DNA from: Polytrichum commune
Taxonomy: Eukaryota > Streptophyta > Polytrichopsida > Polytrichales > Polytrichaceae
DNA length: 64,000 nucleotides
Direction: 5' to 3'
Assembly (NCBI GenBank): GCA_950295325.1
Contig: OX485806.1
Span: forward strand, 8,000,001-8,064,000
Position numbers and translations under genes: made by a program. This document shows, piece after piece, positions 7,945 to 10,900 of the stretch (position 1 is the first letter of the stretch; each line of letters begins with the position of its first letter). The notes beneath the pieces were generated by a model that saw only the letters and a program-made list of their open reading frames with translations, did not search any database and was not told the DNA's origin.

Positions 7945-10900
7945 TTAGTCCAGAGTCGCTTTGCCCTTCCCTCTGGGCATCTTGTGCGCTCCAGCTGCAG
8001 AAACAATTGGAAAATGTCAGGCACAAAACTATGCAGCTTCTTTGAGTTACAAACAAGAAGCTACTCTGAGTTCTAAATTTATCCAATTATTACTATGATG
8101 TGGCAGCTAATACAGAATGAACAAATATTGTTCAAATACACAATGAAGGTTACGTTTGGGTCTCATAGACAGCGCATGATGCAATGATTTCAGGGTTTCG
8201 TTTACTTATGACTTTTTTGCAATACCAATTTATAGCGCCACATTAATGGATTTGACTAAGTAAAAAACACAATGAATATAACAACCAATTAAAAATGCAA
8301 TATATGATATGACATTAAATGCACCAAATTTAAGAACATGAAGAGAAGAGAAGGTGCGTACTATCTTCAACATCTTTCAGCTTATAGTAATGTGGGGCGA
8401 TCTCTACCAACCAATCTGGCTTGATCTCAATAACCTGCAATGAGCAACACAACATTCTATATGTGAAATACATATAATCAACTCGATGACAAATCCCAGT
8501 TTCACAACGATAATTCCCTTGAAATATCCATGTTTATTTTGATAAAGAAAATTTTAAATTGATTTTTACCTGTCTCATATACTCCTTCGTAGTGAGGACA
8601 AGCTCATGGTACACCACCCACCTTGGAAGAACCTGGTCCAGAGAACTAATTGTCAGCACTTGGTACTTGTAAAAATTAATGAAACTTGGAAAGCATTATA
8701 AACCCACTCAATGCCGGGATTGGGCAGCACAATCTTTGCTGAAACAATCAGAAAAGGTGAGGTGACAAACAAAATACTTAATGTGGTACCCTGAATAAGT
8801 GAAGTTCATATGCATTATCAAAAGCTTTACATAGAAGCCCTCTCAAGCATGCTTATCAGTAAGTGGGCCTTGAATAGACACTATTAGCTCTGCACCCACT
8901 TCTCCTGAGATTAAAACATGAAATTGAGTACAAGATGATAAACAAATCCAAATCAAGGCTGCAATCATTTTACCCATGATTTTTAGAGCTCGTATAAATA
9001 TCTTCTTAATTGTCAAAGTGGAGATTCCCTTTTTTCTTCAGTGATCATACAGGTGGCCCCATAAAATTATTAAGCAGTGTGTGTTCGTTCATGTGGGCCC
9101 TGAGAATATAACCATGGGATGCCCCAACCTATTGGGGCTTCAGATTTAATCTGAGTCTCCTTGCACTAGGTTGGGGCATCCCATGGTTATATTCTCAGGG
9201 CCCACATGAACGAATGCACACTGCTTAATAATTTTATGCCCAATTATGTTGCCTTTTGAACCTAGAATATTTAACAAATTTTGAGCACATACTCCAATCT
9301 CTTGTAGACACATGTCTTCTTGGTCCGTTCTCAGATGCATACCTAATCACACACTCCTCAAATATAGGTGTCCAATTAAGATAAGTAACCATATTAGGTC
9401 TAGTTACCTTATGGCTTGTTGTTGGTGGGGGATGATAAGTCCTTTCCATATTTATTACTTGGACTACCAAAGTGGTGGCCCTATTGTAAAAAATACAAGG
9501 TGATGTTCTTAGAATACGAAGTGGAAGAATGTGACAAACCTTATCCAGCCCGGAACTTGGGTGTATGCTGACTGTTTGTGGGTTCTTCACTGTTCGATAT
9601 GATCCATTCTTTTGCAATTTGGCTGTATGATAAAAGAATCCTGTTGCATCCAAATGAAGCCGTTAAAATTCCTACAAAATGAGAACTTTGGCCTGGTAAG
9701 GACAAGAACTTGAGAGCGTAATCATTTGGAACACTGGTCAGAAATATAAAGGTACCGTCAGTAAAATAATATGCCAAATTTAGCACTGCAAATTTAGAGT
9801 GTACCAGAAGTAATGGCCTTCTTTATAGCATCAAGATCATTGGGATTGGAAGTAGACTCAATTTCGACCCGCTCCAGCAGCCCTTCCAACTGATCTCTAA
9901 TATCACGAGCTCGCTTCATGCTCCGCACCTGCAAACAATAAAACGAGCAAGCGAATAAACATTTCTTCTTTGTCTTTATAAACAACACACTTGAACAAAT
10001 GGGATGAGAACTTTGGCAATTTTAATTTGATTGCTCCTCATTTTTCTCCTCTCCTGTCTTTAACCCTTTAAGCACCAGGGTGTGTTTATATGGGATAAAA
10101 GATGATTTGTACATATCCCCAACAAGAATTGAAATAATTTTGTAGTTGTTCTATGATATTGCATCTGTATTTAGCGCAACCTCTCAAAAAGCAGAAGAAA
10201 AAATTAAGTTGTATGTGACAATAGTGATTAGAAATATGTGGTATGTATTTAAGGCTAGGTCATTTATGCGAGCGCAAACCTCCTTATAATTCACTTCACA
10301 TATATGCATGCTCCGATTGAACTAATGCATTAGATCACTGAACTAATTTTAGATAGGATCTTTAATCTTAAACCCCTCCGTATGACCCCTTGAGGCCCAG
10401 AATGGGCCTCTTGGAACATCTCAGTGGCCTGACGAATGTTGCAGGAAGCAGTCTTACCTGAATATAGTTTTCATAACACCATTGTGTTGAAAAATTGGTT
10501 TCCTTCCATGAGTCATAGACCTGCACAGTTGCTCCAAATTAAGGATTACTGAAAGGTCAAACATCACTCTAACATGTACTATTTTATTAGACACTTCACA
10601 ACTTTTCATTAACTAAATAAAACATGCATTCTATGTCTAAATTTATACAACACAGGCTGTTCAAGAAATTGAAAACACTTCAGAAGGCTCAAAAACTTGT
10701 CCAAAACGAGGGTGTAAAACGGTAATGTCACCAAACTGGATCCAGTTTCATAAAAACAAATGCAAAGGTGAAGGTCTCTCCAAATGAGGCTTCTAAGACC
10801 ATCTATACAGAATTAAACTTTGAAAACCTGATACAACCCACTAAACCAAGGAGAAACAAAAAGAAGGGTGTTCTTAACAAGGGAGGCTTGCTAGTGAATA

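What the first reader, a model, noticed from the sequence alone, without database searches (positions are those of the whole stretch)
9060..9238. Near-perfect 179-bp hairpin element inside a splicing-helicase intron, with a copy at 60391-60568
Both loci show ~72-bp inverted arms with the same sequence and a short loop. Copy 1 sits within an R1 element in an intron, so it would be transcribed as part of the pre-mRNA and could yield a long dsRNA hairpin. The almost complete arm identity in copy 1 suggests recent insertion or small-RNA-linked constraint. The R1 copy at 13009 shows the empty site, and CCC may be the duplication. I do not know a named family with these ends.
Basis: seen in the sequence. 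Interest (0 to 1): 0.7.

Follow-up and report, generated by a model that had tools for sequence, protein, structure and literature searches.

The report
Small palindromic transposon in an intron
A short non-coding jumping element, almost a perfect palindrome, has landed inside another repeat in an intron of what looks like a plant splicing-helicase gene, and a second, more decayed copy lies 51 kb away; it is an ordinary kind of plant element whose sequence carries marks expected of past DNA methylation.

Summary
9060-9238 is a 179-bp hairpin (75-nt arms, 96% complementary; RNA fold -145.6 kcal/mol, z -22.7), with a second copy at 60391-60568. Copy 1 lies in a 907-nt intron (9539 to 8633, minus strand) of a DHX16-type splicing helicase and interrupts a roughly 370-bp dispersed repeat, R1. 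Other R1 copies show the uninterrupted site, which fixes the ends as CATAA...TTATG and the duplication as 2 or 3 bp (CC/CCC; AA at copy 2).

This is a palindromic miniature inverted-repeat transposable element (MITE) that fits none of five plant superfamilies compared. The arms show decay, not constraint: 9 of 9 single-arm changes are transitions, 8 are C>T/G>A, and 7 of those 8 fall in CG/CHG sites, which are 8 of 27 C/G positions. Pairing is kept by 5 of 9, about chance. This fits a cytosine-methylated, silenced hairpin better than a microRNA gene under selection. Small-RNA output, methylation and genome copy number could not be tested, as no genome is held for this window. New member of a known kind.

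The parts
9060..9238 (+). Copy 1 of the palindromic MITE, 179 bp, ends CATAA...TTATG; orientation defined by its asymmetric centre
9060..9134 (+). left arm of copy 1
9164..9238 (-). right arm of copy 1
9057..9059 (.). left target-site duplication, CC or CCC
9239..9241 (.). right target-site duplication, CC or CCC
60391..60568 (-). Copy 2 of the element, 178 bp, centre inverted relative to copy 1, more decayed; flanks AAA and AAG (2-bp AA match)
8859..9411 (+). R1 dispersed repeat interrupted by copy 1 (aligned pieces 8859-9061 and 9241-9411)
13018..13387 (+). R1 copy with the uninterrupted site (bases between AGGT and AAT at 13210-13215)
8633..9539 (-). 907-nt GT/AG intron of the DHX16-type helicase gene that holds R1 and copy 1
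10971..12185 (-). helicase ORF (Helicase_C, HA2), best PDB match DHX16

Best explanation
It is a non-autonomous palindromic DNA transposon (a MITE, foldback type) of 178-179 bp. Shown here: two dispersed full-length copies with the same ends, and a clean insertion of copy 1 into an R1 repeat with a 2-3-bp target duplication. Inferred: a transposase encoded elsewhere recognises the CATAA...TTATG ends. Predicted in silico: the intronic copy folds on itself inside the helicase pre-mRNA. Inferred: it is removed with the intron, and hairpin RNA from family members feeds DCL3-type 24-nt siRNAs that direct DNA methylation of the family. The C>T/G>A decay at CG and CHG sites is the sequence trace expected from methylation. 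It probably does little to the helicase beyond lengthening the intron (inference).
For: Two copies with the same ends and unlike flanks. An uninterrupted site in other R1 copies: 13009, 17978 and 55896 have six bases between AGGT and AAT; copy 1 gives six with a 2-bp duplication and five with a 3-bp one. At 179 bp it is too short to encode a transposase. Hairpin fold z -22.7 and -18.7. In the 1028-nt intron-plus-exon transcript the element pairs only with itself in the minimum-energy fold: 162 bases paired inside, 0 outside; register pair probability over the 72 outer pairs mean 0.959, minimum 0.000. Substitutions: 9 of 9 single-arm changes are transitions, 8 are C>T/G>A, 7 of those 8 lie in CG/CHG, which are 8 of 27 C/G positions (hypergeometric P 7e-5, binomial 0.0012). 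Window controls: arms of four other inverted repeats (chosen from 29 pairs) 29 transitions of 59 differences (Fisher P 0.003); R1 four-copy set 19 C>T/G>A of 93 (P 7e-5); tandem repeat at 1886-2612 7 of 25 (P 0.002). DCL3-made 24-nt siRNAs from near-perfect MITE stems and the methylation they direct: PMC10004981 (12 passages seen). miRNA-like structure going with small RNAs and methylation in maize: PMC10760457 (abstract and start of introduction seen).
Against: Only two copies could be examined. The duplication is 2 or 3 bp and imperfect at copy 2 (AAA/AAG at 3 bp); a 2-bp match occurs at 7% and a 3-bp match at 2% of random site pairs. The ends match no superfamily compared. No small-RNA, methylation or expression data. 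Changes could predate insertion. CG decay is not special to the hairpin: in the three-copy R1 set the 4 resolved CG sites carry 4 C>T/G>A changes, and the tandem repeat has 3 of 7 such changes in CG/CHG, which are 14 of its 77 sites with a known context. The four-copy R1 set has no resolved CG or CHG site left, so age explains part of the contrast. The context test was devised after seeing the changes.
Confidence: 0.82

Rival explanations
1. A young microRNA gene or other small-RNA source whose arms are kept complementary by selection.
For: Near-perfect 72-nt stem with a small loop, in an intron. Three pairs differ on both sides between the copies (columns 6/174, 63/117 and 84/92), against 0 or 1 when partners are slid by 1-3 columns. 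Below-threshold matches of copy 1 to seven miRNA hairpin models, such as mir-28 at 40.7 bits (cut-off 64) and the plant family MIR405 at 35.1 (cut-off 102) (copy 2 was not searched at this laxer threshold).
Against: Two dispersed copies with fixed ends, and an empty site. Single-arm changes are indifferent to pairing (5 of 9 kept as G-U in the element's sense strand; 0 of 2 in the gene-sense transcript of copy 1). 56 of 500 shuffles reach the three double changes. The seven Rfam models belong to different families and none reaches its cut-off, as a long stem alone could give.
Confidence: 0.07
2. A MITE of a known superfamily, most likely CACTA by duplication length, with diverged ends.
For: A 3-bp duplication is allowed at copy 1. 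CACTA elements make 3-bp duplications (PMC10741241, passages).
Against: Termini are CATAA/TTATG, not CACTA or CACTG. Copy 2 has no exact 3-bp duplication. No autonomous relative could be searched for.
Confidence: 0.15
3. A local inverted duplication formed by template switching and then carried elsewhere by segmental duplication, not by transposition.
For: Palindromes can arise by fold-back synthesis (general knowledge). The window holds other inverted repeats, 29 pairs of 25 nt or more within 600 bases.
Against: Homology between the copies stops at both ends in both copies, the flanks are unlike, and the R1 site is restored when the element and one short duplication are left out.
Confidence: 0.04

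Closest known systems
Plant MITEs in general (PMC10741241 and PMC10004981, passages seen)
   Same: Under 500 bp, non-coding, terminal inverted repeats, short target duplication, more than one copy; folds as a near-perfect hairpin; in an intron.
   Different: The arms make up nearly the whole element. Ends and duplication fit none of the five superfamilies compared (Tc1/mariner, PIF/Harbinger, hAT, Mutator, CACTA).
MITE-derived hairpin siRNA and miRNA loci of rice and other plants (PMC10004981 passages; PMC3086885 abstract and outline)
   Same: Long near-perfect self-complementary stem from a transposon in a non-coding part of a transcript.
   Different: No small-RNA evidence here; pairing shows no sign of selection.
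Foldback elements (recalled)
   Same: Long inverted arms that take up the element.
   Different: Those of Arabidopsis carry about 9-bp duplications (recalled); here 2-3 bp.

Membership tests
MITE | Short (mostly under 500 bp), non-coding | tested here: met
   179 and 178 bp; definition from PMC10741241 passages
MITE | Terminal inverted repeats | tested here: met
   75-nt arms 96% and 65-nt arms 89% complementary
MITE | Target-site duplication | tested here: inconclusive
   CCC/CCC at copy 1, AAA/AAG at copy 2; 2 bp fits both and the six-base empty site, 3 bp fits copy 1 only
MITE | Multiple dispersed copies with fixed ends | tested here: met
   Two in 64 kb with the same ends; genome-wide number not testable
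MITE | Autonomous partner with the same ends | not testable with these tools
   No genome held
Tc1/mariner (Stowaway) | TA duplication | tested here: not met
   Flanks CC and AA. A TA placed inside the ends (shift 4) matches in both copies, as any palindrome would give, but would leave extra bases in the empty R1 site that the other R1 copies lack
PIF/Harbinger (Tourist) | TTA or TAA duplication | tested here: not met
   No shift of the two ends from -4 to +6, symmetric or not, gives 3 bp or more in both copies
hAT and Mutator | 8-bp and about 9-11-bp duplication (lengths recalled) | tested here: not met
   No exact repeat longer than 3 bp at any symmetric shift from -6 to +8
CACTA | CACTA or CACTG termini and 3-bp duplication | tested here: not met
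   Termini CATAA/TTATG; 3 bp at copy 1 only
Plant microRNA gene | Precise 21-22-nt miRNA/miRNA* duplex in sequencing (recalled) | not testable with these tools
   No small-RNA reads available
Plant microRNA gene | Match to a known family | tested here: not met
   In the whole window the only Rfam hits at gathering score are two tRNAs; copy 1 matches seven miRNA models below their cut-offs

The most novel reading that the evidence does not exclude
A palindromic element outside the named plant TIR superfamilies (2-bp duplication of any sequence, CATAA ends) whose two arms change together between elements (A-U versus C-G at pair 6/174, C-G versus U-A at 63/117), as if one arm is recopied from the other when the element moves, for example through a folded single-strand intermediate.
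Probability: 0.1. Interest if true: 0.5.

Novelty: new member of a known kind. Interest (0 to 1): 0.2.

Why it matters
It is a clear example of how plant genomes seed introns with ready-made hairpins. If its arms began as matched copies, each mismatch is a recorded mutation, so the element can serve as a small natural meter of methylation-driven C-to-T decay. If its 2-bp duplication and arm co-variation hold across a whole genome, it would point to an unclassified transposition mechanism.

Tried and rejected
Chance palindrome: rejected. Ends further in, at TA or TTAA (self-complementary words inside a palindrome mimic a duplication): rejected because the R1 empty sites have no room for the outer bases. 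Known small RNA family: none at cut-off. More copies elsewhere: two pattern scans each of viral contigs and genome contigs gave 0 hits; expected, since those are not plant collections, so this says nothing about copy number. Papers holding any of six 14-15-base arm strings: 0. Other paper searches were seen as listings. Selection on RNA pairing: not supported. Copy 2 gene context: not established; of 8 ORFs of 68 aa or more at 58-63 kb only the one at 59585-59944 was scanned, with no Pfam hit. Host species: not identified; plant is inferred from a Myb_CC_LHEQLE hit at 24708-25121 (its restriction to plants is recalled). A bacterial promoter scan was run and not used.

Full report
What is there. 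The 179-bp stretch 9060-9238 is a near-perfect hairpin: 75-nt arms, 96% complementary, 29 nt apart. It folds as RNA at -145.6 kcal/mol against a shuffled mean of -45.4 (z -22.7; 0 of 200 shuffles as good). The copy at 60391-60568 has 65-nt ungapped arms at 89% and folds at -114.3 (z -18.7; 0 of 200). The two align over their full length, best when one is reverse-complemented, because the centre (about 35 nt) is not symmetric and carries the orientation. A profile of the outer 64 positions of the four arms finds no third copy in the window at its inclusion threshold. In a list of inverted repeats of the whole window with arms within 600 bases, these stand second and third and have the highest arm identities among those of 50 nt or more (25 of 29 pairs shown).

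Where it sits. The gene around copy 1 runs on the minus strand. ORF 10971-12185 carries Helicase_C and HA2 domains, and its best solved relative is the splicing helicase DHX16 (E 2.1e-176; yeast PRP2 4.3e-114). The exon ending ...SSGLDK and the exon starting [21 protein letters not shown] are separated by a GT/AG intron, 9539 to 8633 (907 nt). Three exon pieces joined at that intron and the next align to DHX16 945-1023. For this C-terminal piece the yeast PRP2 entry matches only weakly (E 0.00077), so the name rests on DHX16. The intron also holds R1, a repeat seen again at about 5955, 6564, 13018, 17978, 31600, 48190 and 55896.

Insertion and ends. R1 copies lacking the hairpin show the target. 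Copies 13009, 17978 and 55896 read AGGTCCCCACAAT, AGGTATCCCCAAT and AGGTGCCTCCAAT, each with six bases between AGGT and AAT (the first two also; the slices printed there for 55896, 48190 and 6564 missed the site). Copy 5955 (AGGCTCCCACAAT) has the same length with one changed base. Copy 6564 is diverged (CGTACCCTCATT, also six by the alignment). Copy 31600 (longer C-run and a CA repeat) and 48190 (two bases longer) differ in length. Copy 1 reads AGGTGGCCC, element, CCCAAT. Leaving out the element and a 2-bp duplication gives six bases; with a 3-bp duplication, five. At copy 2 the flanks are AAA and AAG, so 2 bp match. No symmetric shift of the ends from -6 to +8 gives more than 3 bp at copy 1 or more than 2 bp at copy 2, and no combination of shifts from -4 to +6 gives 3 bp or more in both. 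A 2-bp match has a 7% and a 3-bp match a 2% chance at random sites, so the duplication alone is weak evidence. The sharp shared ends and the empty R1 sites carry the case for insertion.

How the arms have changed. Over 64 outer positions the arms of copy 1 differ at 2 and those of copy 2 at 7. Positions 65-72, where copy 2 has a one-base gap and a further mismatch, were left out of the count. Taking the majority of four arms as ancestral (positions 6 and 63, split two to two, left out), there are 9 single-arm changes. All 9 are transitions, 8 are C>T or G>A, and 7 of those 8 are in CG or CHG, which account for 8 of 27 C/G positions (hypergeometric P 7e-5; binomial 0.0012). Controls in the same window: arms of four other inverted repeats, chosen from the 29, show 29 transitions of 59 differences (14 of 29, 6 of 12, 7 of 13, 2 of 5); R1 19 C>T/G>A of 93 (four copies) or 28 of 109 (three copies); the tandem repeat at 1886-2612 7 of 25. 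Fisher P is 0.003, 7e-5 and 0.002 for the inverted arms, the four-copy R1 set and the tandem repeat. Two further repeat pairs gave 41 of 64 and 31 of 53 transitions, unpolarised; for the second, a row printed 14 C>T/G>A of 53, but two sequences give no real polarity.

Against reading this as special to the hairpin: the three-copy R1 set has 4 C>T/G>A changes at its 4 resolved CG sites, 1 at 3 CHG and 20 at 101 CHH; the tandem repeat 1 at 4 CG, 2 at 10 CHG and 4 at 63 CHH; the four-copy R1 set has no resolved CG or CHG site. So methylation-type decay is probably general in these repeats, and the hairpin's purer spectrum partly reflects its youth. Both changes of copy 1 (intron) are at one CG; the four CHG changes are all in copy 2. 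[quoted passage not shown]

Constraint or decay? If the RNA stem were under selection, changes should tend to keep G-U pairs in the transcribed strand. In the element's own sense 5 of 9 do (2 of 2 in copy 1, 3 of 7 in copy 2). In the helicase-sense transcript of copy 1, 0 of 2 do. Three pairs changed on both sides between the copies; 56 of 500 shuffles reach that, while sliding the partners by 1-3 columns gives 0 or 1. A crude simulation of 13 random changes gives two or more positions hit in both arms of one element in 2.8% of runs, an upper bound since it ignores the base. Two of the three are C/T-type and could be parallel deamination; the A-U/C-G difference at pair 6/174 is not. So constraint is not supported, and joint change of the arms is a hint that more copies could test.

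What it most likely does. Shown: an inserted element with fixed ends. Computed: in the 1028-nt transcript around the intron it pairs with itself only in the minimum-energy fold (162 bases inside, 0 outside), with register probability over the 72 outer pairs of mean 0.959 and minimum 0.000. Inferred from published work: near-perfect MITE stems are cut by DCL3 to 24-nt siRNAs that direct methylation (PMC10004981, 12 passages), and miRNA-like structures go with more small RNAs and methylation in maize (PMC10760457, abstract and start of introduction). The decay signature is what this would leave, although any methylated transposon would show it. Not shown: transcription, small RNAs, methylation, or effect on splicing.

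Classification. It meets the general description of a MITE (PMC10741241, 12 passages) but not the duplication or end rules of Tc1/mariner, PIF/Harbinger, hAT, Mutator or CACTA (the hAT and Mutator lengths are recalled). Other superfamilies were not compared. It is best filed as an unclassified palindromic MITE. No plant genome or repeat library could be searched, so whether this family already has a name is unknown.

Verdict.

Noticed in passing
13018-13387, 17978-18353, 8859-9411: R1 itself looks like a TIR element of about 370 bp with ends AAGGTAA...TTACCTT, clearest at 17978, so copy 1 may be one transposon nested in another.
   Followed up: partly
52798-52905: Inverted repeat beginning GTACTCCCTTTGTCCCAAAATGA, resembling the common Stowaway-type CTCCCTCCGTCCC ends (resemblance recalled).
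   Followed up: no
20872-21422: The longest inverted repeat listed in the window: 189-nt arms, 85% complementary, 173 nt apart; its arms differ by 14 transitions and 15 transversions.
   Followed up: partly
40515-42742: Array of degenerate repeats with a palindromic core like TTGTACCCTCGGATCCGAGGGTACAA.
   Followed up: no
1886-2612: Tandem repeat of about 255 bp, neighbouring copies up to 94.7% alike.
   Followed up: no
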